This document shows positions 14,903 through 28,714 of a stretch of 64,000 bases of DNA, one piece after another. Position 1 is the first letter of the stretch; the number at the start of each line of letters is the position of its first letter. The notes under the pieces are model-generated. The model searched no databases and was not told where the DNA came from. It worked only from the letters and a program-made list of their open reading frames with translations. This stretch comes from an uncultured Shinella sp. (GTDB lineage Bacteria; Pseudomonadota; Alphaproteobacteria; Rhizobiales; Rhizobiaceae), in contig NZ_CAMLFY010000012.1 of NCBI RefSeq assembly GCF_946479415.1, positions 1 to 64,000 of the forward strand, given 5' to 3'. The position numbers were made by a program, and so were the translations under genes.

Positions 14903-15208
14903 TCAGTGGGTCCAGGGCTGCATGCGGTTGAAGCGGAAATTGTCGGGATAGGCGCAACGCTTGCGGGTCGCGTCCTTGGGCTCGATCAGGCGGAATTCGA
15001 TGCCGTTGCGCTCCGCATAGGCGATCGCCTCTTCGCTGGTCTCGAAGGACAGCTTGACCTGCTGATACATGTCGCCGGAGCTCGTATAGCCCATGATCGG
15101 GTCGATCGTGCGCGGCTTTTCGGCGTCGAACTCCAGAACCCATAGGTTGGACTTGGCCTTGCCGGACTGCATGGCGGTCTTGGCGGGACGATAGATCTTC
15201 GCGGTCAT
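14903..15208 (-). CDS. NADH dehydrogenase accessory subunit, NDUFS4-like (ETC complex I subunit conserved region)
   Basis: A 101-residue homologue of the 18-kDa accessory subunit of mitochondrial complex I. It has MTAKIYRPAKTAMQSGKAKS at the start, WVLEFDAEKPRTIDPIMGYTSS in the centre and a YAERNGIEFRLIEP strand near the C-terminus. In alphaproteobacteria this protein is usually encoded alone and joins the complex at the periphery. The start ATG at 15206-15208 opens the conserved region. The tRNA-Arg gene lies 10 nt after the stop. The left att copy of the integrated element lies 126 nt upstream. Confidence 0.9.
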   Translation of the reverse strand: MTAKIYRPAKTAMQSGKAKSNLWVLEFDAEKPRTIDPIMGYTSSGDMYQQVKLSFETSEEAIAYAERNGIEFRLIEPKDATRKRCAYPDNFRFNRMQPWTH

Positions 15209-15334
15209 CGAAGCGGCTCCAGAATTCTCGCATAAAGGCACGCCGTTTCGCCGGCGCGCGTCCGAGAATGCATAACCCAGATTCCGTAAAGGGGGAATGA
15301 CCGGAACAGCATTTGGCATCGAAACGCCCGCCGA

Positions 15335-15357
15335 TGGTCGGAGTGGAGAGATTCGAA
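15335..15357. repeat. Left attachment site copy (attL core)
   Basis: A 23-nt copy of the tRNA-Pro 3' end starting TGGTCGGAGTGGAGAGATTC; it covers CCA, the acceptor strand and part of the T-arm. It is a fragment without the rest of a tRNA, as expected for the displaced original 3' end. Confidence 0.9.
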
Positions 15358-15405
15358 ATCGTATATGTCATTGTTTTTCAATGACAATTTCCACTCTTTG
15401 TGACC

Positions 15406-15431
15406 TTGTAACGGCTCGTCTTTTGTTACAA
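15406..15431. promoter_or_regulatory. Candidate integrase arm sites, left end
   Basis: TTGTAAC at 15406-15412 and its inverted form GTTACAA at 15425-15431 lie 48-74 nt inside the left att copy. The same heptamer occurs twice inside the right end (23155-23161, 23167-23173). A short hairpin (TGTCATTG and CAATGACA, 15366-15386) lies between att and these sites. Confidence 0.5.
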
Positions 15432-15505
15432 ATTTCGATGGTTCCTATAGCCGGACAGGTGCCGTGACGCAACCACGAATCGGCGTGTCAACTTGTCATG
15501 AGAAC

Positions 15506-16186
15506 CTATTCCTCTGAACCGGCCTGAACTACCGTCTCGGCAGCAGCGATAATTTCCTCGAATACGGCATTGCGGTAGTAATAATGACCGCCAATGGTTT
15601 TAGGATTGCTACCCGTCGTTAAAAGTCCACGGGTGGAAAGCTCATGAAGATGCTCTTGCGCCTGCATGTATGTATAATCGCGTCCCTGTTCGCCGAACGC
15701 GTCAACCATGATCAAGGGCTCTAGGCAGCCGGGTGTCGCACTTTCTCGTTTAGAGATGTGGGTCAGTTCGAAGCCTCGCTTACACATTCCGAGGAATGCC
15801 AACTGCTCGAACGATAGCATTTCAAGTTTGCGCGCTGCACGACCGATCTTACCTGCATCTGCAACAGCGGCACTATCAAGCTCGCCTGCGATCAACCTTC
15901 CAAGAACATGGAGATTGTGATGGTATTCGCCTATGCGAACCTGTTCGAAGAATCGATACGCCGCAGGCAGATAAAACTGAGATTGCTCCTCAGAAAGCAC
16001 TTCAATCCCCCTCTCAGAAACGAGAGAAATAAGCTTCTTCTGATATTTCTCAATTTTCAGTTCGAGAGTGATCTGCATCAGCTCTTTTAACGTGGCGAGG
16101 CCGGGAAGGCTCGCACATATAGCGCCTGTCACCTTGACGACGGTTTCGGCGTTTCGTGCCGGCTGAGGGAGAGATTCTAGCGTCAT
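15506..16186 (-). CDS. Unknown protein, second gene of the island cargo cassette
   Basis: I do not recognise a family. The 226-residue product is soluble and mostly helical. Residues 40-100 are rich in Lys, Glu and Leu and could form a coiled coil. The C-terminal third (QEHLHELSTRGLLTTG, then YYYRNAVFEEIIAAAETVV) resembles a winged-helix with a wing-like YYYRN strand, but this is weak. The gene starts 8 nt after the DUF2971 stop, with AGGGTGA upstream, so the two are one operon. GC content is visibly lower than in the flanking chromosome. Position near the attachment site of a phage element suggests a cargo (for example anti-phage) function, which is only inference. Confidence 0.75.
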   Translation of the reverse strand: MTLESLPQPARNAETVVKVTGAICASLPGLATLKELMQITLELKIEKYQKKLISLVSERGIEVLSEEQSQFYLPAAYRFFEQVRIGEYHHNLHVLGRLIAGELDSAAVADAGKIGRAARKLEMLSFEQLAFLGMCKRGFELTHISKRESATPGCLEPLIMVDAFGEQGRDYTYMQAQEHLHELSTRGLLTTGSNPKTIGGHYYYRNAVFEEIIAAAETVVQAGSEE

Positions 16187-16194
16187 AGATCACC

Positions 16195-17172
16195 CTAAGT
16201 TCGCAGCGGTATATCTGAGCAAACTACCATCTTTTCCGGCTCTTTCACGCCCACGCCGGCAAGCACTTCACAAAATGCTTCGCGCACCGCATCAGGATAT
16301 TCGGTCGGACCAATTATAACTCGCTTCAAAAGCTGCGGGACCGATATCCCGGTCATGCCGAGGTCTGGGCGATCCTCGAACGATAGCTTGAAAACTCTCT
16401 GCGGGACGCCAGCGATGCTTTGAATGTCGCACTTGAGGGCCCCCTGATCATCCAACCCTTTGGTATGCATTATCCGCCATTCTCGTTCTTCACTGAATCC
16501 TTTGTGTTTAGAGCAGATCGAGAGCGAGCGTAGCAGTTGGAACAGATAGCCTTTGATCTCATCCGCCCCTGACGCCCGCAGGAAGTCGCTTTCTCTTCCA
16601 ATGTTTTCTGCGATTTCGATAAAGAGGTTCATCACATCCTCTTGATCGCAGTAGTAAACGGGACTGCTGAAAGCACCGAAATTTTCGGCGACTAGATAAA
16701 GCGGCAGTGGATTAATGACTAAGCCGACATTAACGCGGCTGTTTCCGTATGCACGCCACATCGAAAGGCGCCCATAATCGTTTTCCGCTTTTTCATGTTC
16801 TGACAGGCAGACAATATGCGTCTGCTCCCGCATCGTATCAAACCATCCCTCGAACAAAGAAATGGCATCGTCCATCAGCCCAGGAAATACTTTGTTGAGA
16901 GCTGTGCGTATCGCATTTAGCCCGACTTCCGGCGCATCGTCCGCAGGAGGAGTGTATGCCTTCCGAAGCAAGTCGAACCCATGATCTACCTCTCGGAAAT
17001 CGTTCATGAGCCTGATATTTTTCATCCATATTTCATTCCCACGAATGATAGATATGGCGTTATCAGCCGACGTATAATGTATTAGCTTATGATCATTCTG
17101 TAGTAGGTTGTTCCTGATGCGAGCTTCATGTGGTGCGAAAATGTCTCGCAGTTTAAACATTGCTTCCAGCAT
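16195..17172 (-). CDS. DUF2971 domain-containing protein, first gene of the island cargo cassette
   Basis: A 325-residue soluble protein. It has the DUF2971 pattern: HYTSADNAISIIRGNEIWM near residues 32-50, LMNDFREVDHG at 55-65, a CLSEHEKAENDYGRLSMWRA segment around 120 (the family Cys-x-Ser and Met-Trp motif), YYCDQEDV around 165 and a late EEREWRIMH. The biochemical role of DUF2971 is not established. The start at 17170-17172 has AGAAGGGTGA upstream; an ATG four codons later is possible. It is the first gene of the two-gene cassette. AT-rich codon use differs from the neighbouring phage genes, which suggests a separate origin. Confidence 0.85.
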   Translation of the reverse strand: MLEAMFKLRDIFAPHEARIRNNLLQNDHKLIHYTSADNAISIIRGNEIWMKNIRLMNDFREVDHGFDLLRKAYTPPADDAPEVGLNAIRTALNKVFPGLMDDAISLFEGWFDTMREQTHIVCLSEHEKAENDYGRLSMWRAYGNSRVNVGLVINPLPLYLVAENFGAFSSPVYYCDQEDVMNLFIEIAENIGRESDFLRASGADEIKGYLFQLLRSLSICSKHKGFSEEREWRIMHTKGLDDQGALKCDIQSIAGVPQRVFKLSFEDRPDLGMTGISVPQLLKRVIIGPTEYPDAVREAFCEVLAGVGVKEPEKMVVCSDIPLRT

Positions 17173-17331
17173 CGCGAATCACCCTTCTGGCGCTAAGGAT
17201 AACGTCGCAGAATTCGTGAAATTTTCACTCCCATCGAGCGAGTTATCCTCTGAATACTATCCACCATAGAATTACGACTGGCGAGGCCAAAGCCCCGCCA
17301 GTCGTGCGCCGTGTCCCGACGATGGATGGCG

Positions 17332-17712
17332 TTATGCGGCTTCCCCCTCTCCCGGCTTCCGATACCGGACTTCATTGTCATCACTTTCGACAATAAGGGC
17401 ATCCTTGACGCGCTCGAACAGGTCACGCACCCGCTTGAGGTTCGCGACGTAGTTCTCAATATCCTCAATGAAGCAGTCCAGCTCGGCGACCGGCTCATCC
17501 ACTTCTTCCACGGCGTCCGCGACCAACTGCGAGAGCTCCCCGGTGTGACCATACATACCCGGATCGCGGAGCAAATCGTCCGGCTTGCAGCGTTCGACGG
17601 TCGGCCCCATGCTAAAGGTGGTCTGCCAGCCGGCGCTGACGAAAGTTGCCCAGAGCTCCTTCTCGGTGAGCGTTGCGGACGGTGCCTGAGGCGTGGTATT
17701 TTCATTCGACAT
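17332..17712 (-). CDS. Hypothetical protein of the phage element
   Basis: A 126-residue acidic protein, not recognised. The middle region (ELSQLVADAVEEVDEPVAEL followed by DIENYVANLKRVRDLFERV) is likely a helical hairpin. The ATG at 17710-17712 has AAGGAAA 6 nt upstream, which decides the start. No signal peptide or membrane segment is seen. It is followed by 159 nt without a gene. Confidence 0.7.
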   Translation of the reverse strand: MSNENTTPQAPSATLTEKELWATFVSAGWQTTFSMGPTVERCKPDDLLRDPGMYGHTGELSQLVADAVEEVDEPVAELDCFIEDIENYVANLKRVRDLFERVKDALIVESDDNEVRYRKPGEGEAA

Positions 17713-17805
17713 AGCGATTTCCTTGGTTGTTATCGTGGTGTGAGATTGCGGGACGGCCAAGCGGTGCCTGAGAAACGTTGCTTGGCTGTTCCCATTCTTG
17801 AGGGG

Positions 17806-18315
17806 CTATTCGCCCGTTGCATCGACGGCGAGCAGCGTGTGCCGCGTCGGCTTCCGAAGCTCTGTTCGAATGCCCTTCAGGCGCTCGATCTCGGCGAAGG
17901 ATTTCTTCAAAGCTTCAACGTCGCCGCGAGGTAAGTTCGCGCTAACCTCACATGCCGCGTCGATCGCGGCCTCAACTTCCTGAAGCTTGTATTGGTTGAT
18001 GAGCGCAGCAAGTTCCTTTGCAGCGTCAAGGAAGACGCCCATCATTCCCCTTGCCCTTTCGAGCGAGGAAAATTGCTTCTCCCACGGCGCTTCGGTGTCG
18101 AACTTCTGCACTTCTTCGCCGAGGTCCGTCCCACTGATATGCACGCCATAGGCATCGAGGTTTTCTTCTAGGTCCAAATGCCGGCCATCCATGTAAGCGT
18201 GAAATGGCGTGACGACGTATTTGGGTGTCGGCACCGGCTCGAGCAGCGCCTTACGGGCGGCCTTTTTCTGCCGGTCTCTAAATTCCTTGACTCGTTCAGC
18301 TGAGGTCTTAGCCAT
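17806..18315 (-). CDS. Hypothetical protein of the phage element
   Basis: A 169-residue protein, not recognised. It begins with a very basic stretch (MAKTSAERVKEFRDRQKKAARKAL) that resembles short basic N-termini of phage small DNA-binding or accessory proteins, then turns acidic and helical. The ATG at 18313-18315 is preceded by AAGGAG, whereas the two-codon longer TTG start is not. It lies in a run of same-strand small genes. Confidence 0.7.
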   Translation of the reverse strand: MAKTSAERVKEFRDRQKKAARKALLEPVPTPKYVVTPFHAYMDGRHLDLEENLDAYGVHISGTDLGEEVQKFDTEAPWEKQFSSLERARGMMGVFLDAAKELAALINQYKLQEVEAAIDAACEVSANLPRGDVEALKKSFAEIERLKGIRTELRKPTRHTLLAVDATGE

Positions 18316-18363
18316 TGGCAACTCCTTCGTTACCGATACATGTAACGGAAACAGTGGGCCAGG

Positions 18364-18567
18364 TCAAGCGACTACGAGAGCCTTTTCCTCATCGGCACCC
18401 GTGAAGGCTGTCATCGGCCAAACGCCGAGATCGCCTAGGGCTTCAATAATGCGGGTGCGCAGGTCGTCGGGTGCGGCCGGATCGAAGGTGCGGGCGACGT
18501 TCTCGACGATATCGATGGCGTGGTGGTAGGCGTCGGCGTGAAAGTATGCGGCGGACTGCATTTCCAT
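18364..18567 (-). CDS. Small hypothetical protein of the phage element
   Basis: A 67-residue protein, not recognised (MEMQSAAYFHADAYHHAIDI at the start). It has a His/Asp-rich first helix. The start at 18565-18567 has a purine-rich CAGGGGA upstream. Its spacing to the next gene (48 nt) fits a common transcript. Being short, it is less certain than its neighbours. Confidence 0.5.
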   Translation of the reverse strand: MEMQSAAYFHADAYHHAIDIVENVARTFDPAAPDDLRTRIIEALGDLGVWPMTAFTGADEEKALVVA

Positions 18568-18695
18568 TGAATCCCCTGCCCGTGATTAGGCGAGACACAT
18601 GTGATTCATGTCGAGCGATTTGGCAAGTGTAGTCACGAGAAATTTGTCAATAAAAACAATAAGTAAGCACTTACTTATCTCGCAAGACGCGCAAG

Positions 18696-18735
18696 CAAAA
18701 AGCCCTTCACGACCCGCAAGGCATGAAGGGCTTAA
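18696..18735 (-). terminator. Rho-independent terminator inside the island
   Basis: AAGCCCTTCA (18700-18709) and TGAAGGGCTT (18724-18733) form a stem followed on the minus strand by TTTTTGC. A second stem (GCCGGACGCAA with its complement, about 18740-18777) sits just upstream of it. Together they separate the 18861-19798 genes from the 17332-18567 genes. Confidence 0.7.
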
Positions 18736-18860
18736 GGGTGCCGGACGCAATGAATGGAAGCCCTTGCGTCCGGCGTTCTCGGTTCCCAATCGGACGACAG
18801 GTCAACGTCCGACAATTCACTTATAGCGGGATCGCCGAGCGAGCGCGGCGTGCGCGAATG

Positions 18861-19283
18861 TTAGAACTTTCCGAAGTTCTCTTTCGCCTCTAGGTCGCGC
18901 TGTCCTGCCGCCTTCTTTTCCATAACCTTCGCACGCTTGCGCAGCTTGTCGGCTTCACGGTCCTTCTCGATCTGCGCCGGACTGCGGTTGTCCTTTGATG
19001 CCTTCTTCTGTGCCTTCCGCCGTTCCGGGGTGGCCTTTTCGTAGGACCGGACGGCGCGGCCTTCGGTCGCGAGTATATCGGCTGCGTAGGCGGCGCGCTG
19101 ATCGGCCTTACGCTTGGTCGCACCACGGCCGTTGCGATAAGCCTCATCCTTCAGCTTCGCTACCGTGTCAGTGATGAGAGTCTTTAGTGCAGCCGACATA
19201 CGGCTAGACGAAATGTCCCCGGACGCGGCAGGCGCTTCATCGTTAATATTTTGTTGACTATCTTGATTGAATTGTTTATTCAT
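18861..19283 (-). CDS. Hypothetical basic protein of the phage element
   Basis: A 140-residue, highly charged protein with many Lys, Arg, Ala and Glu, not recognised. Residues 60-140 (for example ATPERRKAQKKASKDNRSPA) should be a long basic helix, as in nucleic-acid-binding proteins. The ATG at 19281-19283 is chosen over a TTG three codons earlier; neither has a strong ribosome site. Confidence 0.6.
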   Translation of the reverse strand: MNKQFNQDSQQNINDEAPAASGDISSSRMSAALKTLITDTVAKLKDEAYRNGRGATKRKADQRAAYAADILATEGRAVRSYEKATPERRKAQKKASKDNRSPAQIEKDREADKLRKRAKVMEKKAAGQRDLEAKENFGKF

Positions 19284-19351
19284 TGTGAACAATCATTTGA
19301 GGCGATTGTGGTCTTCGAACCCCGGCTGACGAGTAATCGGCCGGGGTTTTC

Positions 19352-19798
19352 TTATGCTGCGGCCTTTTCAAGCAGGTCAGCGAGGTCGAGCGCAAGGTCG
19401 GGCGGGAAAGAAACAGCGTCGGCAAGCGGCGTCTTGCCGAACGGCAGAGCGATCTTCAGACCAGTGCCCTGCTTCTGCACGGCGAAGTCGTGGCCCACGT
19501 TGACAGCAGTCGGGGATGCGTTACCGGCGATCACTTCCCGAACCGTGCTCGCAAGGGCCTGCGCGCCGGCCGTCTTCAAGATAATCTCTTCGTCCTCGCG
19601 AAGGCTGACAGCGATACCGTCGCCCTGCTTGCGGATTGACGTGCCGGGAATGTCGGCGGGGATGATCCCGGCCGCGATCTTCTCGCGAATGAAGGCGGCG
19701 ATTGCGCCAGCATTGCTGAGGTTCATTGCGGATGCGATTGCCTTGAGCTGGTCGAGGCGGCGAGGATCAAGACGGACGGTTACGGGCGGGTGAGCCAT
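19352..19798 (-). CDS. Hypothetical protein with a ribbon-helix-helix-like N-terminus
   Basis: A 148-residue protein. The first 45 residues (PPVTVRLDPRRLDQLKAIAS then MNLSNAGAIAAFIREKI) resemble a ribbon-helix-helix DNA-binding fold, with a strand carrying Thr-x-Arg. The remainder is unrecognised. The ATG at 19796-19798 is preceded by GGAG at 6 nt, which favours it over the ATG at 19808-19810. It lies next to a 500-nt noncoding region with inverted repeats that could be its operator; that is inference. Confidence 0.6.
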   Translation of the reverse strand: MAHPPVTVRLDPRRLDQLKAIASAMNLSNAGAIAAFIREKIAAGIIPADIPGTSIRKQGDGIAVSLREDEEIILKTAGAQALASTVREVIAGNASPTAVNVGHDFAVQKQGTGLKIALPFGKTPLADAVSFPPDLALDLADLLEKAAA

Positions 19799-20314
19799 GG
19801 GATACTCCATTAATCATCCATCATATATACATGTGTATTAGTAGCAGATCAACAGTGTCATCCATTTTCCGGGGACTATTTCTTACCCGCGTCCAATGTC
19901 ACTTTCCGGGGACATTTTCGCCTATAGTATATGTGTAGATACGTATTTGTAAGAAAGAGAAGATAGCGAGAAAATGTCCCCGGAAAGTTGATGACACTCG
20001 GTCGCCTGCGGCTCCCTCCCTGCGCGGCCTATCGGCCTTGCCCGCGCCTTGCGGCGCGAACGCTTAAAGCGAATGACCGGAAGGTCTCTTTCTGGGAGTC
20101 GCCGGTCATTCGTTACCGCGTCCGGGCGGAACGTATCCGAGCCGAATAGATAGGCTCCCGGCCGGTCGCTCCGCTCCCCGGCGCGGAAGCAGTATCATGT
20201 CGGACAGGGACCGCTCCCTGCTTCCGCCATAGCGAGTCACTGAGAGGCGTCACGGGTGCCGGATGAGCAATGACGCACCCAACATCACAACGCGCGCCAG
20301 CGACTCGCTATGAG
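19799..20314. other. Noncoding, hairpin-rich region of the phage element
   Basis: No gene is seen in these 516 nt. CTTTCCGGGGACATTTT occurs at 19902-19918 and inverted near 19971-19987, and a partial third copy (TTTTCCGGGGAC) lies at 19865-19876. Further stems are CGAATGACCGG with CCGGTCATTCG (20070-20080, 20102-20112), GCGGAAGCAG with CTGCTTCCGC (20183-20192, 20218-20227) and ATAGCGAGTC with GACTCGCTAT (20229-20238, 20302-20311). It may hold an operator, a replication signal or a structured RNA. Confidence 0.5.
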
Positions 20315-20665
20315 TCAAACTGCAAGCGTGAAGCTTTGGACTAACTCAGCAGTGACATGCCACGGCGCTTCGGCCGAATAGGTCCAGTCCTTGCAAGTCC
20401 ACTTGCAGGTGGCCGTCTCGCCATAGGGCTTGAAATAGAACGGCTCGTATCCACCCCTCGCCTCGAAGAAATCCACGATGGCGCGCATGTCGGCATAAGT
20501 GAGCGCGCCCCACGACAAGGACACGCTCTTGCGGATATGGTTCAAGCCCTTCGGCGTCGGCTGGCTGTAGCCGTCGCCGAATTCGGTCTCCCAAAGGTTC
20601 ACGGTCGGCTTGTGCATCGTTCCCGGTGACGGACCAACGGGCGGGGTGAAGGTCGGCAAGGCCAT
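20315..20665 (-). CDS. Phage minor tail protein (lambda gpM-like)
   Basis: A 116-residue protein of the phage-related tail family exemplified by lambda gpM. It has the expected opening (LPTFTPPVGPSPGTMHKPTV), a central VETEFGDGYSQ-type segment here read as ETEFGDGYSQPTPKGLN, and the WGALTYADMRAIVDFFEARG helix, followed by a C-terminal strand region with EAPWHVTAELVQSF. In complete phages the gene follows the tape-measure gene, as here, with only one nucleotide between stop and start. The gene looks intact. Confidence 0.85.
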   Translation of the reverse strand: MALPTFTPPVGPSPGTMHKPTVNLWETEFGDGYSQPTPKGLNHIRKSVSLSWGALTYADMRAIVDFFEARGGYEPFYFKPYGETATCKWTCKDWTYSAEAPWHVTAELVQSFTLAV

Positions 20666-20666
20666 A

Positions 20667-21854
20667 TTAGCGCCCCCTATTATTCAAGGTGTTTCCGGGC
20701 CGCGCCTGCCTGCGGATTTCGTCCGCGACCACGCCGCGCATGGTCTGCTCCATCTGCTTCGCCATGCGGGCGGCAAGGTCGGCGTTCTGTTCCGGCGTGC
20801 CGGAACTGCCGTTGATAGTGACGGGCGCATTGATGGAAATGGCCTGCACCGGGGCGGCGTTGCTGTTCGCAGCCGTGAGGTCAGGGCGACGGATGGCCGG
20901 GGCATTGCCGACATACCCGCCTTCCGCAAACCCGGCGAGCGCGCCACGGTGAAGGGTTTCGAGGTTGCCGACGCCGATCCGGCTGGTTGCCTTCTTCGAC
21001 ATGACATACTCGCCACGGTGGACGACGCCTGCGGGCTGATACTTCCCGCCGTCGCCGGTATAGCCGCCCTCGCTGAAGCCGAACAGCGCGCCGAAGATGC
21101 CACCGCCCATCCCGCCGAACAGGCCGGAGAGCGGTCCCTTGCCGAGAAGCGCGGCCTGCAAGGTCGCATCGATCAACGAATTAAGCAGGCTCTGCACCGC
21201 GCCCTCAAGGGTCTGGGTGCCGGTGAGAAGGCCGGACAGCGACGACGTGAAGCTTTCCGCGAAATACTCCTGCGCGTTCTTCAGGCTATCGGCCGATGCA
21301 GCAACCTGCTGGTTGGTGCCGTCAAGCTGCTGCGTGAGCGTGATCTTCTCGCGAAGCTTGGCAAGCTCCTGATCGGACAGGGTGATGCCCGCGCGCTTCG
21401 CCTCCTGCTGCGCCTGATAGACGGCAAGCTCAATCCGCTGCTGTGATGCCGACATGCCGGAAATCGACTGTTCGAACCGTGCGAGGTCCAGTCCCTCCTG
21501 CACTGACTGGTTCAAGCTCTTGCGCGCCGTGTCCTGCTGCTTCAGCAATTCGGTGCGCTGGCGCTCGCTGTCGGTCGGTGCAAGCGGCTGCGCCCCCGTA
21601 GGCGTGCCAGCATAGGCGTTGCGGATGGTGCTATCGTCCACGCGCTTGAGGCCGGTCCATTCCTCGCGAAGCTCTGCCGGGTCATTGCCGCGACGACGCA
21701 ACAGGGCGCGCGCAAGCTCGTCCTGGGTGGCCTCATCATAGAGGCGATCACCCGACAGGCCGAGTTCCTTCATAAGACCTTCAAGAGTCCGGCCGGTGAT
21801 CTGGTAGCGGCCGAGCGCCGAAGACCCCTTGCCGTCGCCGTAGAGGGCGCGGTT
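20667..21854 (-). pseudogene. Phage tail tape-measure protein, C-terminal fragment
   Basis: Only the last 396 codons remain. The first in-frame ATG is at 21771-21773, but homology-like sequence runs upstream to about 21854: YGDGKGSSALGRYQIT followed by GRTLEGLMKELGLSGDRLYD, which resembles a lysozyme-like domain. Then come helical Gln/Ala-rich repeats, the hydrophobic Gly-rich stretch (GLFGGMGGGIFGALFGFSEG) and the terminal GEYVMSKKATSRIGVGNLE segment typical of tape-measure C-termini. The upstream part is lost where it joins the integrase gene. It is followed by the gpM-like gene. Confidence 0.85.
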
Positions 21855-23139
21855 TCACGAATTCGATAAAGCCTTCGCTGACGAGTGCTTGATGAATAGG
21901 AACCTTGCGACCTTTCCGGGTCTTTGTCGTGCGCCCCTCGCCGACGCGGATATGGACGAACCAGTTCCCCTGAAGCTCGAATAGGTCGGCCTTCTCCAAT
22001 TGCAGCGCCTCACCGACGCGCATTCCGCTATAGGCGAGCAACCACGGTATCCAGCGGAAGTTCGGCCGGTCCTTCTGCTGCCGTGCAGCCTCAAGGACCT
22101 TCTTCGCCTGCTCAAGGGTATAGGTGCGGGTGGCGCTGTCGGTGACTTCAGCAACGGGCAATTCGATGTAGTCGAACGGCGTGCCCTTCGGTATGTCGGG
22201 AAAGAGCTTGCCCCGGCATTGCTCTTGCCCCCATGTCAGGATCGCCCGGATAGCGGCGAGCTTGTCACGGATGGTCTTGCGGGAGAGCTTCCCGGCCTCA
22301 AGCATGGCGTTGCGCCACGCCTCACCCTCTTCGAGGGTAACGGTCGCTATTTTCTTGCTGCGGCGATGATGCTCGAAATCGTGGACCGTGTTGCGATACT
22401 TCTCCAAGGTCGCCGACGACTTCTTATTGCCGCCTAACCCCATGCCGGTTAGGCGCTCCTTCTCCTGTATGACGGCTTCGAAGGTGAGGCTGTTGAACTC
22501 GCTCGCGGATACCTCTTCGGCAACAGGGTCGGTCTCGACGGCATTAGCGAGCAACGGGTCTTCGGGCTTGCCGCTGAAATCGCCCTCATCGCGTTCGGCG
22601 ACACGGGCGAGCGCTTCAAGCTCTGAGACACACATAGCGCGGGCGAGCGTGCGCCATTCCGGCGAGCCTTTCACCACGGTCGTGTTGCCGAGGCGTCGAA
22701 AGCGCTCGATCCGGTTTCCCACCAATGTCTCAAGGGTATCGTCATCAAGCCCTCCGGCGATACCGGCCCGAAGCAGTTCCACAAGACGGTCGTCTATCAG
22801 GCCCATGGCATGACGGTTGTCCATGTTCCGAAGCTCGGTGTCGAAGGCGATGCGGTCATTGTAGTTCCGCAGGGCGATCTGATCGACGGGTAGCGGATAG
22901 CGGCCCGGTGTGATGGCCTCGCCGTGCGCCAGTGCCTTGCGGCGTTCAGCAACGGCCATGCGTGCCTGAAGCTCTGCGACGGCCGTATGAAGCCGTGCCA
23001 GTGCCGTGCGGCGGTCAGCGCCGAGCGGTGCGCGAAGTTCGGTCTTGTTGTCGAGGAAAGGCCGAAGCTCGGCGGGAATCACGATGCGGGCGAAATAGCG
23101 TCCGTCGCGATTGAGGAGATATCTGGTGTTCTTGGCCAT
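21781..23139 (-). pseudogene. Tyrosine recombinase (phage integrase), truncated at the catalytic end
   Basis: A 452-codon frame. It starts MAKNTRYLLNRDGRYFARIV (DUF6538-like N-terminal arm-binding region), has a SAM-like core-binding domain around residues 225-320 and the first catalytic Arg in AYSGMRVGEALQL near residue 375. After KVPIHQALVSEGFIEFVKPR the protein ends in 22 residues (PLRRRQGVFGARPLP...) that are the tape-measure sequence read in another frame. The HxLRH box, the second His/Trp and the Tyr nucleophile are all missing. It faces inward from the tRNA-Pro. Confidence 0.92.
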
Positions 23140-23154
23140 CTGTTAGCACCCGTT

Positions 23155-23174
23155 TTGTAACAAGGTTTGTAACA
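23155..23174. promoter_or_regulatory. Candidate integrase arm sites, right end
   Basis: Two direct copies of TTGTAACA (23155-23162 and 23167-23174), 12 bp apart, lie between the integrase start and the tRNA-Pro 3' end. The same motif lies inside the left end of the element. Confidence 0.5.
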
Positions 23175-23233
23175 GAAAGCTGGCCTGAACCCACTGGAAA
23201 CCCTGAGTTTCCGGGCTTTTCAGCCCGCCGGAC

Positions 23234-23310
<77 letters not shown>

Positions 23311-26954: not shown

Positions 26955-27029
26955 GCGCCCTTCGTCTATCGGTTAGGACGCCAGGTTTTCATCCTGGAAA
27001 GAGGGGTTCGACTCCCCTAGGGCGTGCCA
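26955..27029 (+). tRNA. tRNA-Glu(UUC), copy 1
   Basis: A 75-nt cloverleaf including CCA: GCGCCCUUCGUCUAUCGG at the 5' end, anticodon loop UUUUCAU (anticodon UUC), T-arm GGGG-UUCGACU-CCCC. The first acceptor pair is a G-U. Two identical copies follow. Confidence 0.95.
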
Positions 27030-27161
27030 CGGTTCCCTCCCCCGAAACCCTTGTTTTTCACGGAAAAAGCGCTCGGCTTTCCGCTGTTGAAAAAGTTGCG
27101 TCCAACGCGATTTTTCGGCTTGCGCATCCGCCCGCGCCCGACTAGAAGACGCCCACCGCAC

Positions 27162-27236
27162 GCGCCCTTCGTCTATCGGTTAGGACGCCAGGTTTTCATC
27201 CTGGAAAGAGGGGTTCGACTCCCCTAGGGCGTGCCA
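27162..27236 (+). tRNA. tRNA-Glu(UUC), copy 2
   Basis: Identical in its 75 nt to copy 1. The 15 nt before it (AGACGCCCACCGCAC) also match copy 1; the sequence after it differs. Confidence 0.95.
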
Positions 27237-27585
27237 CTTCTCTCCCCTCCCGTACATGATATCTGTAGGCATCGACCCGTCGTCGTCCGTGGTTTGATAC
27301 CGGGTGATGGGCATGATCCAGCCCGTCGAATGCCCTGTCCGACGGATAACGGTTCGCGGCCGCGAAGGTCTACCTCTCCGGTACTAGTACCATCATCCCT
27401 TTACCCCATCCGATCTAGTCTTTCCTGCAAAATCAGAGGAGCCTCTCCCCTTTCAGACGACCGTCTACACCGGATTTCTCATGGAACAACGAGGACAACC
27501 CACAATTCTTGTCAGTCGCCAGTGCGCGCAAATTGCGGTTTATTGAACGTTCCAAATGAGGGGGCAACGGCAGCAGGAGGTAGCC
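27237..27585. other. Intergenic region without a recognisable gene
   Basis: These 349 nt between tRNA-Glu copy 2 and the Hint-domain gene hold no convincing frame. GGTACTAGTACC near 27379-27390 is a short palindrome of unknown meaning. The promoter of the Hint gene must lie here or the tRNA transcript must extend through. Confidence 0.5.
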
Positions 27586-28410
27586 ATGTCGTTAGATCGG
27601 AAGCCTGATATGCGCATCAATCGAGCGAGACGACACTTCCTGGGCTTGTCGGCAGCCACGGGGGCCCGTTTCATCGCCATGGGGTCCATCGCGGCAACGC
27701 TGCTTCCCTCGTCCGCCCGGGCCATGGGATGGAAATGGTGGCGCAAGGGTGACGGCGATGGTCACGGCGGAATGTGCTTCCTGGCCGGGACTTCGATCCG
27801 CACGGTGGACGGCGCGGTATGCGTCGAAGACCTTCGCATCGGCGATCTGGTCGAAACCGTGAATGGCGAAGCCAAACCCGTCAAATGGATCGGCCATCAC
27901 ACCTTCAGGCGGAGCGCCCGTTCCTGGAGCAGGAGCGTGATGCCCGTTTGCATCGCCCGCCATGCCCTCGACGAACAATCGCCCAGCCGCAACCTCTATG
28001 TCTCGCCCGGTCACGCGCTGTATATCGACGGGGTCCTCATTCAGGCGGCCGATCTCGTGAATGGAACCTCGATCACGCAGGCCGTGCCGGAAGGTGTCGA
28101 AAGGCTCGACTACTTTCATATCGCCTTCGAGACGCACGAGGGCATATTCGCGGAAGGCGCCGCCGCCGAATCGCTGCTGCTCAGGGATGGCAATCACGAG
28201 ATATTCGCGAATTTCGCGGATTATGCCCGCCTCTATCCGAACGATCCCCAGACCGCCATGGTGCCCTTCGCGCCGACCGTCAGCTATGGCGGCAGCGAAC
28301 ATCTGAAGGCCTTGATCCGTCTGGCGATACCGCGATTTGCCCCGCAACGCGGGCGGGCACGACGGATCTATGACCGGATCGCCGCGCGTGCAGACAATTC
28401 GATGGCATAG
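27586..28410 (+). CDS. Hint-domain protein with a Tat-type signal peptide
   Basis: A 274-residue protein. The N-terminus has RARRHFLGLSAATGARFIAM, a twin-arginine-like motif with a hydrophobic stretch ending around LPSSARA, so export folded is likely. From about residue 63 it has a Hint (hedgehog/intein) domain: MCFLAGTSIRTVDGAVCVED, then LRIGDLVETVNGEAKPVKWI (block A-like), YVSPGHALYIDGVLIQAADL (block B/F-like). Many alphaproteobacteria have such Hint_2 proteins with unknown roles. RBS AGGAGG precedes the ATG. It lies between tRNA-Glu copies 2 and 3 and ends at its own terminator. Confidence 0.87.
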   Translation: MSLDRKPDMRINRARRHFLGLSAATGARFIAMGSIAATLLPSSARAMGWKWWRKGDGDGHGGMCFLAGTSIRTVDGAVCVEDLRIGDLVETVNGEAKPVKWIGHHTFRRSARSWSRSVMPVCIARHALDEQSPSRNLYVSPGHALYIDGVLIQAADLVNGTSITQAVPEGVERLDYFHIAFETHEGIFAEGAAAESLLLRDGNHEIFANFADYARLYPNDPQTAMVPFAPTVSYGGSEHLKALIRLAIPRFAPQRGRARRIYDRIAARADNSMA

Positions 28411-28437
28411 CCTGCGAAAGCCGCGATTCAATTTAAA

Positions 28438-28475
28438 CACCGCCGGGCATCCCTGTACCCGGCGGTGTTCCTTTG
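28438..28475 (+). terminator. Terminator of the Hint-domain gene
   Basis: CACCGCCGGG and CCCGGCGGTG form a 10-bp stem with a 10-nt loop, followed by TTCCTTTG. Confidence 0.7.
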
Positions 28476-28639
28476 TATCGCGGATCCGGCGGCGAAAGCC
28501 GTTCGGCAACGGCCCGCCACCGTTGCCGCCCGTTTACAGGCGTCAGAAACGCCGGCATATGCGAGCGGAAAAAACTGAAAATTCCTGCATTTAGGGCTTG
28601 CGCGAATCCATCCGCCCGACTAGATAACGCCCACCGCAC

Positions 28640-28714
28640 GCGCCCTTCGTCTATCGGTTAGGACGCCAGGTTTTCATCCTGGAAAGAGGGGTTCGACTCC
28701 CCTAGGGCGTGCCA
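28640..28714 (+). tRNA. tRNA-Glu(UUC), copy 3
   Basis: Identical 75 nt to copies 1 and 2. The upstream sequence resembles that of copy 2 (GACTAGA then ACGCCCACCGCAC) and the downstream sequence that of copy 1 (CGGTTCCCTCC). Confidence 0.95.

What the first reader, a model, noticed from the sequence alone, without database searches (positions are those of the whole stretch)
15335..23256. A 7.9-kb decayed phage element in tRNA-Pro(UGG) with exact 23-bp ends
The last 23 nt of the tRNA-Pro gene recur exactly at 15335-15357, on the far side of an integrase gene and phage tail genes. This fixes both ends of an integrated element and predicts the ancestral order NDUFS4-like, tRNA-Pro, DUF192.
Basis: seen in the sequence. 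Interest (0 to 1): 0.75.

Follow-up and report, generated by a model that had tools for sequence, protein, structure and literature searches.

The report
Stranded satellite-like phage element in tRNA-Pro
A 7.9-kb stretch in a Shinella-like soil bacterium is the remainder of a phage-derived mobile element of about 18 kb that entered a tRNA gene and then lost the active end of its integrase and its capsid genes; its intact relatives in rhizobia make their own capsids but appear to lack much of a tail, so they may be a little-described group of phage satellites.

Summary
The last 23 nt of tRNA-Pro(UGG) recur exactly at 15335-15357. In 7 of 12 fetched Shinella loci the predicted empty site exists, with the NDUFS4-like start codon 107-129 bp after the tRNA. 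Five of 26 integrase relatives fetched from viral contigs carry the same 23-mer beside the integrase. Four probable integrase arm sites (GTTACAA) sit only at the two ends.

'Decayed phage' needs refining. Integrase residues 1-431 of about 525 (HxxR box and tyrosine gone) are joined to tape-measure residues 484-875; portal, capsid and terminase are missing. Adding the missing ~10.2 kb gives ~18.2 kb; two complete relatives measure 18,077 and 17,346 bp. They encode integrase, head, packaging and a tape measure. No tail tip, fibre or holin was recognised; whether they have a tail tube is open, because one small protein carries that label in two libraries. They resemble capsid-forming satellites (cf-PICIs) with differences. 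A second Shinella genome holds an independent integrase/tape-measure fusion in the same tRNA gene.

Dependence on a helper is inferred, not shown. The window copy probably cannot excise by itself. Verdict: real and well bounded; an immobilised member of a little-described Rhizobiales family.

The parts
23234..23310 (-). tRNA-Pro(UGG), the target gene, intact at the element's left end
23234..23256 (-). 23-bp repeat, tRNA side (attL core)
15335..15357 (-). 23-bp repeat, far side (attR core)
23155..23173 (.). two GTTACAA repeats at element positions 84 and 96, probable integrase arm sites; GTTACAA at 83 and GTAACAA at 95 in five relatives
15406..15431 (.). two GTTACAA repeats (opposite orientations) near the right end, probable integrase arm sites
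21781..23139 (-). truncated tyrosine integrase: residues 1-431 match 524-525-aa relatives, then 21 unrelated residues; HxxR box and nucleophile tyrosine missing
21849..21855 (.). deletion junction between integrase and tape-measure gene
20667..21855 (-). C-terminal part of the tape-measure gene (residues 484-875 of 875 in L068), not in the integrase's frame; an ATG lies at 21773
20315..20665 (-). minor tail protein M family gene, relatives in 7 of 65 loci
19854..19998 (.). inverted repeats around TTTCCGGGGACA, possible operator or origin; the 11-mer TTCCGGGGACA found in 2 of 72 related loci
19352..19810 (-). c6, small protein (ribbon-helix-helix by eye), relatives in 10 of 65 loci
18861..19292 (-). 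c5, small protein, relatives in 6 of 65 loci
18364..18567 (-). 67-aa protein, relatives in 22 of 65 loci
17806..18321 (-). c4, 86% identical to a protein of L068, relatives in 16 of 65 loci
17332..17760 (-). c3, 72% identical to a protein of L068, relatives in 5 of 65 loci
16195..17172 (-). DUF2971 protein, probable cargo; 54% identical protein in related element L099
15506..16186 (-). 226-aa cargo protein of unknown function; relatives in 3 of 394 Rhizobiaceae genomes
14903..15319 (-). NDUFS4-like host gene (ORF; likely start 15208), far flank of the empty site

Best explanation
An integrative element of about 18 kb, of a Rhizobiales family that looks satellite-like, entered the 3' end of tRNA-Pro(UGG) by tyrosine-integrase recombination at a 23-bp core (shown by repeats, arm-like sites and empty sites). 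Its intact relatives encode integrase, portal, protease-fused HK97-type capsid protein, head-tail connectors, terminases and a tape measure, then accessory and cargo genes (shown). They probably make their own filled heads and take at least the tail tip, perhaps the tube as well, from a helper phage (inferred). In the window lineage a deletion of about 10.2 kb joined codon ~431 of the integrase to codon ~484 of the tape-measure gene (junction shown; single event inferred). That removed the catalytic end of the integrase and the head and packaging module, so this copy probably cannot excise or package by itself, and its cargo (DUF2971 and a neighbour) is stranded in the chromosome (inferred).
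For: Ends: exact 23-mer pair; empty sites in 7 of 12 loci; GTTACAA at 4 places in the element, all within about 105 bp of the ends, with one more in the 64 kb, and 0 of 2000 base shuffles gave four at the ends. The places are kept in relatives: 84 and 96 in the G018 copy, 83 (GTTACAA) and 95 (GTAACAA) in L021, L023, L024, L025 and L031, while L067, with a more distant integrase (51%), has GTCACAA at 84 and 96 and at its right end. Same target: 5 of 26 viral-contig loci found with the integrase hold the exact core. Truncation: intact relatives continue about 94 residues further, with HGFRH and YGG motifs that the window lacks. Junction: tape-measure similarity begins at 21854-21855, integrase similarity ends at 21849-21854 in the closest matches. 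Size: 7,922 + about 10,235 = about 18.16 kb against 18,077 (L101) and 17,346 (L067). Family: of 65 loci, terminase in 65, tape measure in 57, capsid in 56, portal in 53. No tail tip, fibre or holin recognised among proteins annotated or scanned. No record among 50,697 phage records has a terminase or capsid match of 60% identity; the best listed are 33.0% (25 of 2287 listed) and 36.1% (15 of 620 listed). Cargo GC 49.5% against about 61% in the flanks.
Against: Helper dependence is not demonstrated. One small conserved protein (46 of 65 loci) is labelled tail tube protein by PHROGs (phrog_8985) and in the description of PF11836, although the Pfam short name is a tail-chaperone one; I take it for a chaperone from memory, and NCBIfam and PDB searches did not settle it. 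Not every ORF of the complete elements was scanned, and a divergent tail gene could be missed. A tape measure and a tail terminator are unexpected for a tail thief. No AlpA, Stl or primase was recognised. The genome of the window is not held, so an integrase acting in trans cannot be excluded. The attL flank shares GTCCGGCGGGC with empty sites of relatives, which a simple 23-bp core does not explain.
Confidence: 0.65

Rival explanations
1. Ordinary decayed tailed prophage: the ancestor was a complete small siphovirus, and the relatives either have an unrecognised tail module or are themselves truncated.
For: Tape measure, minor tail protein M, tail terminator, and a small conserved protein that two libraries label tail tube protein; contig-based predictions can cut prophages short.
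Against: Two elements bounded by both 23-mers are only 17.3 and 18.1 kb, with the same gene order; the head genes recur together in most of 65 loci, many of which are cut by contig ends; the other unassigned conserved protein of the head region is predicted almost all-helical, and 7 accessory proteins of the two complete elements match no tail or lysis family.
Confidence: 0.26
2. Non-autonomous but still mobile derivative: the deleted copy keeps core and arm sites and is moved in trans by the integrase of an intact relative, like a MITE of a satellite.
For: Both cores and all four arm sites are kept; a second integrase/tape-measure fusion with both ends kept exists in G018, with a 92% identical right end.
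Against: The exact junction was not found in any viral contig, and the two fusions have different breakpoints, so no deleted form is seen to have spread. In 21 Shinella genomes, 18 have no integrase match at E<=1e-30, two have only 34-35% matches and G018 has only a fragment.
Confidence: 0.07
3. Gene transfer agent remnant: a domesticated head-tail cluster that packages host DNA.
For: One protein matches PF11836 (GTA-gp10), another weakly Phage_TAC_6, and the source record calls the first 'gene transfer agent family protein'.
Against: Integrase, attachment sites, patchy presence and cargo are those of a mobile element.
Confidence: 0.02

Closest known systems
[quoted passage not shown] Read: passages of PMC10803314 and PMC11389934, section 10 of PMC13230959. 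The two founding papers (Alqurainy 2023, de Sousa 2023) were not read
   Same: [quoted passage not shown] integrase in the chromosomal ones
   Different: Relatives here carry a tape measure and tail terminator; no AlpA, Stl-like regulator or primase recognised; protease fused to the capsid protein; the groups in which PMC10803314 says cf-PICIs are primarily found include no Alphaproteobacteria
Mulch and Flayer satellites of Streptomyces (PMC10690885; abstract and section 17 read)
   Same: Satellite with its own encapsidation genes and no recognised replication genes
   Different: Different hosts, virulent helpers; sequence relation not tested here
phiLM21-like prophages of Sinorhizobium meliloti (PMC12429752; passages read)
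   Same: Tyrosine integrase; phiLM21 uses a tRNA-Pro gene of a rhizobium
   Different: phiLM21 is 50.8 kb, with tail and lysis genes, in tRNA-Pro(GGG)
Rhodobacter capsulatus gene transfer agent (recalled; not compared here)
   Same: Shares protein families such as PF11836
   Different: No integrase or attachment sites (recalled)

Membership tests
Tyrosine-integrase integrative element | Direct repeats derived from the target tRNA at both ends | tested here: met
Tyrosine-integrase integrative element | Empty site in relatives | tested here: met
   7 of 12 loci
Tyrosine-integrase integrative element | Complete catalytic set in the element's own integrase | tested here: not met
   about 94 C-terminal residues with HxxR and Tyr missing
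cf-PICI | Own capsid, portal, protease, connectors, HNH and terminases | tested here: not met
   present in intact relatives, absent from the window element
cf-PICI | AlpA or Stl-like regulator and primase | tested here: inconclusive
   none recognised among the proteins scanned; not every ORF was scanned, and one variable head-region protein gives weak HTH matches below cut-off
cf-PICI | No tail genes | tested here: not met
   tape measure in 57 of 65 loci; tail terminator
cf-PICI | Moved by a helper phage in chimeric particles | not testable with these tools
   needs induction experiments
cf-PICI | Capsid falls in known cf-PICI clades | not tested
   no cf-PICI sequences were fetched
Complete tailed prophage | Tail tube, tip or baseplate, fibre and lysis genes in the intact relatives | tested here: inconclusive
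   tip, fibre and holin not recognised; one small protein is labelled tail tube protein, and the tape measure contains a VanY peptidase domain with weak endolysin-family matches
Gene transfer agent | No integrase or attachment sites (recalled) | tested here: not met
   both present
Gene transfer agent | Packages host DNA | not testable with these tools
   needs particles

The most novel reading that the evidence does not exclude
Rhizobia carry a widespread, unnamed family of 15-19 kb satellites that build their own heads and also supply their own tape measure, taking the tail tip and perhaps the tube from a helper phage, so that the satellite rather than the helper would set tail length. In Shinella such satellites become stranded at tRNA-Pro by repeated, independent deletions between the integrase and tape-measure genes, leaving foreign, perhaps defensive, cargo fixed in the host.
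Probability: 0.3. Interest if true: 0.75.

Novelty: new variant of a known kind. Interest (0 to 1): 0.5.

Why it matters
If the relatives are satellites, capsid-encoding satellites would extend into Alphaproteobacteria, including nitrogen-fixing symbionts, in a form that combines its own tape measure with a helper's tail parts; that makes control of tail length in chimeric particles testable. The window copy and the G018 copy show a concrete way in which a mobile element is immobilised: one deletion that removes the active end of the integrase and the packaging module and keeps the cargo. If they are only small phages, the finding is an ordinary, well-bounded defective prophage.

Tried and rejected
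Chance repeat: rejected. Exchange between two tRNA genes: rejected, the far copy holds only the last 23 nt and 7 relatives show the joined site. Frequent fusion as a general rule: the tape-measure survey gave 24 places in 23 of 394 Rhizobiaceae genomes; 21 places have a terminase within a few kb, G018 is an integrase/tape-measure fusion, G322 is a remnant beside unrelated genes, and G081 is cut by a contig end. At most four candidates per genome were scored and three, so the counts are lower bounds. Two fusions (window, G018) are known. Spread of the window's exact junction in viral contigs: none. DUF2971 and the 226-aa protein as a linked pair: no relative of the window's DUF2971 gene found in the 12-17 kb fetched around 3 of 3 homologues. 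PADLOC: only weak matches, DUF2971 to a candidate-defence profile at E 7e-4. TTTCCGGGGACA as a conserved feature: its 11-mer was found in 2 of 72 loci. PDB fold searches for the helical protein and the cargo protein: no match at E<=0.001. Settling the tail-tube label by NCBIfam and PDB sequence search: no informative match. Rep-like motifs (HxHG, in most with YxxK) were seen in some relatives; Pfam and PHROGs do not recognise the two that were scanned.

Full report
Check of the observation. The window holds tRNA-Pro(UGG) at 23234-23310 on the minus strand. Its last 23 nt recur exactly once more in the window, at 15335-15357. A query with the neighbouring DUF192 protein found 12 loci, all titled Shinella, the best at 92% identity, so the host is Shinella-like; its genome is not held. 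In 7 of the 12 loci tRNA-Pro passes directly into the NDUFS4-like side, start codon 107-129 bp after the tRNA, against 126 bp after the far repeat in the window. Of the other five, L001, L005 and L010 have other DNA there and L011 and L012 a different neighbour. In the 21 genomes returned as this genus, 19 have one copy of the 26-nt tRNA end and two have two.

Attachment sites. GTTACAA, in either orientation, occurs five times in the 64-kb window; four of these lie in the element, two at each end, within about 105 bp of the element's limits. None of 2000 base shuffles gave four at the ends. Counted from the first base of the core, the left pair stands at 84 and 96 in the window and in the G018 copy, and at 83 and 95 in L021, L023, L024, L025 and L031, where the second is GTAACAA. 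L067, whose integrase is only 51% identical, has GTCACAA at 84 and 96, two more at its right end and one inside. L101 has fewer exact copies (83 and one at the right end, with GTAACAA at 95). These look like arm-type sites of the integrase; that is an inference from place, conservation and co-variation.

The integrase is cut. The nearest relatives align with residues 1 to about 431 and continue for about 94 residues that hold the HxxR box and the tyrosine region. In the window the frame instead runs 21 unrelated residues and stops. At 21849-21855 integrase similarity ends and tape-measure similarity begins. The joined parts are integrase residues 1-431 and tape-measure residues 484-875 on the scale of L068.

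What was lost. L068 is the closest full-length relative seen (integrase 79%, tape measure 81%, c4 86%, c3 72% identical). It has about 10.2 kb between the two points: portal, a PF11836 protein, capsid protein, a helical protein, HNH, connectors, head closure, both terminase subunits and the first part of the tape measure (domain names from the S. meliloti homologues in L047, where the capsid protein also carries an S78 protease domain). Adding this to 7,922 bp gives about 18.16 kb. The two relatives with the exact core at both ends measure 18,077 bp (L101) and 17,346 bp (L067). One deletion is therefore enough to explain the size; that there was only one is an inference.

The family. A terminase query returned 66 viral-contig loci, one of them already held; of the 65 others, terminase is found in 65, tape measure in 57, capsid in 56, portal in 53. 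Many loci are cut by contig ends, so absences are not informative. Among 394 Rhizobiaceae genomes, 57 have a terminase match at E<=1e-100, 23 a tape-measure match at E<=1e-40 and 19 an integrase match at E<=1e-60; these limits may also admit relatives outside the family. An annotated copy lies in S. meliloti Ak57 pSymB and an unannotated one in USDA1021, and G005 has the head module and tape measure with a different integrase. No record among 50,697 phage records has a terminase or capsid match of 60% identity; the best of the listed rows are 33.0% and 36.1%.

Satellite or phage. In L067 and L101 no tail tip, fibre or holin was recognised; 7 of their accessory proteins were scanned against PHROGs and Pfam with no such match, and their other small ORFs were not scanned. 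Against this stands one point: a small conserved protein (46 of 65 loci) matches phrog_8985 and PF11836, both described as tail tube protein, although the Pfam short name is Phage_TAC_11. I take it for a tail chaperone from memory; NCBIfam and a PDB sequence search gave nothing that decides. The other unassigned conserved protein is predicted almost all-helical with a short N-terminal hairpin (pLDDT 80), unlike a tail tube, and matches no solved fold. The gene set is close to that of cf-PICIs, with a tape measure and a tail terminator added and without a recognised AlpA, Stl or primase. I read passages on cf-PICIs in PMC10803314, PMC11389934 and PMC12846349, section 10 of PMC13230959 and section 17 of PMC10690885. 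The founding papers were not read: one is not held, the other was only seen cited. None of the papers listed in searches had a title or abstract start that reports such satellites in Rhizobiales; several of these lists were cut to the best 8-20, and most subscription papers and preprints are not covered.

A second stranded copy. In G018 the same tRNA-Pro holds a 10.8-kb element with both cores. Integrase residues 1-129 are joined in frame to tape-measure residues 437-902, making one 596-aa open frame; two transposase-like stretches (IS256- and IS66-like, my reading) sit in its cargo. Neither deletion can have come from the other, because the window keeps more integrase and less tape measure. 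So this kind of loss happened at least twice.

Cargo. The last two genes before the far repeat are a DUF2971 protein and a 226-aa protein; that end has 49.5% GC against about 61% in the host flanks. A 54% identical DUF2971 protein lies in related element L099. The 226-aa protein has 10 relatives besides itself in the protein search and a model of low confidence overall (pLDDT 66), whose better C-terminal part weakly resembles winged-helix regulators. Their function is not known; a defence role is a guess.

Limits. No experiment shows that the relatives need a helper or that the window copy is immobile. The window genome is not held. The attL flank shares GTCCGGCGGGC with the empty sites of L006, L008 and L009, so the exchanged region may be longer than 23 bp or was altered later.

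Noticed in passing
L001 (G001:C11:5602-57344): This Shinella genome has two copies of the 26-nt tRNA-Pro end 51.7 kb apart, so a larger element, with no integrase match to the window's at E<=1e-3, appears to use the same site.
   Followed up: partly
L010:10634-19100: S. granuli has about 8.4 kb, by appearance with metE- and nrd-like genes, between tRNA-Pro and the NDUFS4-like gene; the bases after its tRNA resemble the window element's left end, and a stretch 88% like part of the tRNA lies at the far side, as if an older element left a scar.
   Followed up: partly
window 23223-23233 and 15326-15334: Beyond the 23-bp core the attL side carries GTCCGGCGGGC as in the empty sites L006, L008 and L009, while the attR side has TCGGCGGGC as in L002.
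   Followed up: partly
L062, L063, L067, L083, L090, L138, L189, L190: Some related loci have an ORF with an HxHG motif, in 7 of 8 followed by YxxK, like rolling-circle Rep proteins; the two scanned match no Pfam or PHROGs family.
   Followed up: partly
L197:93-1075: A relative of the 226-aa cargo protein lies beside what reads like an integrase N-terminus, near other phage-like genes.
   Followed up: no
window 26955-28714: Three tRNA-Glu(UUC) genes lie within 1.8 kb.
   Followed up: no
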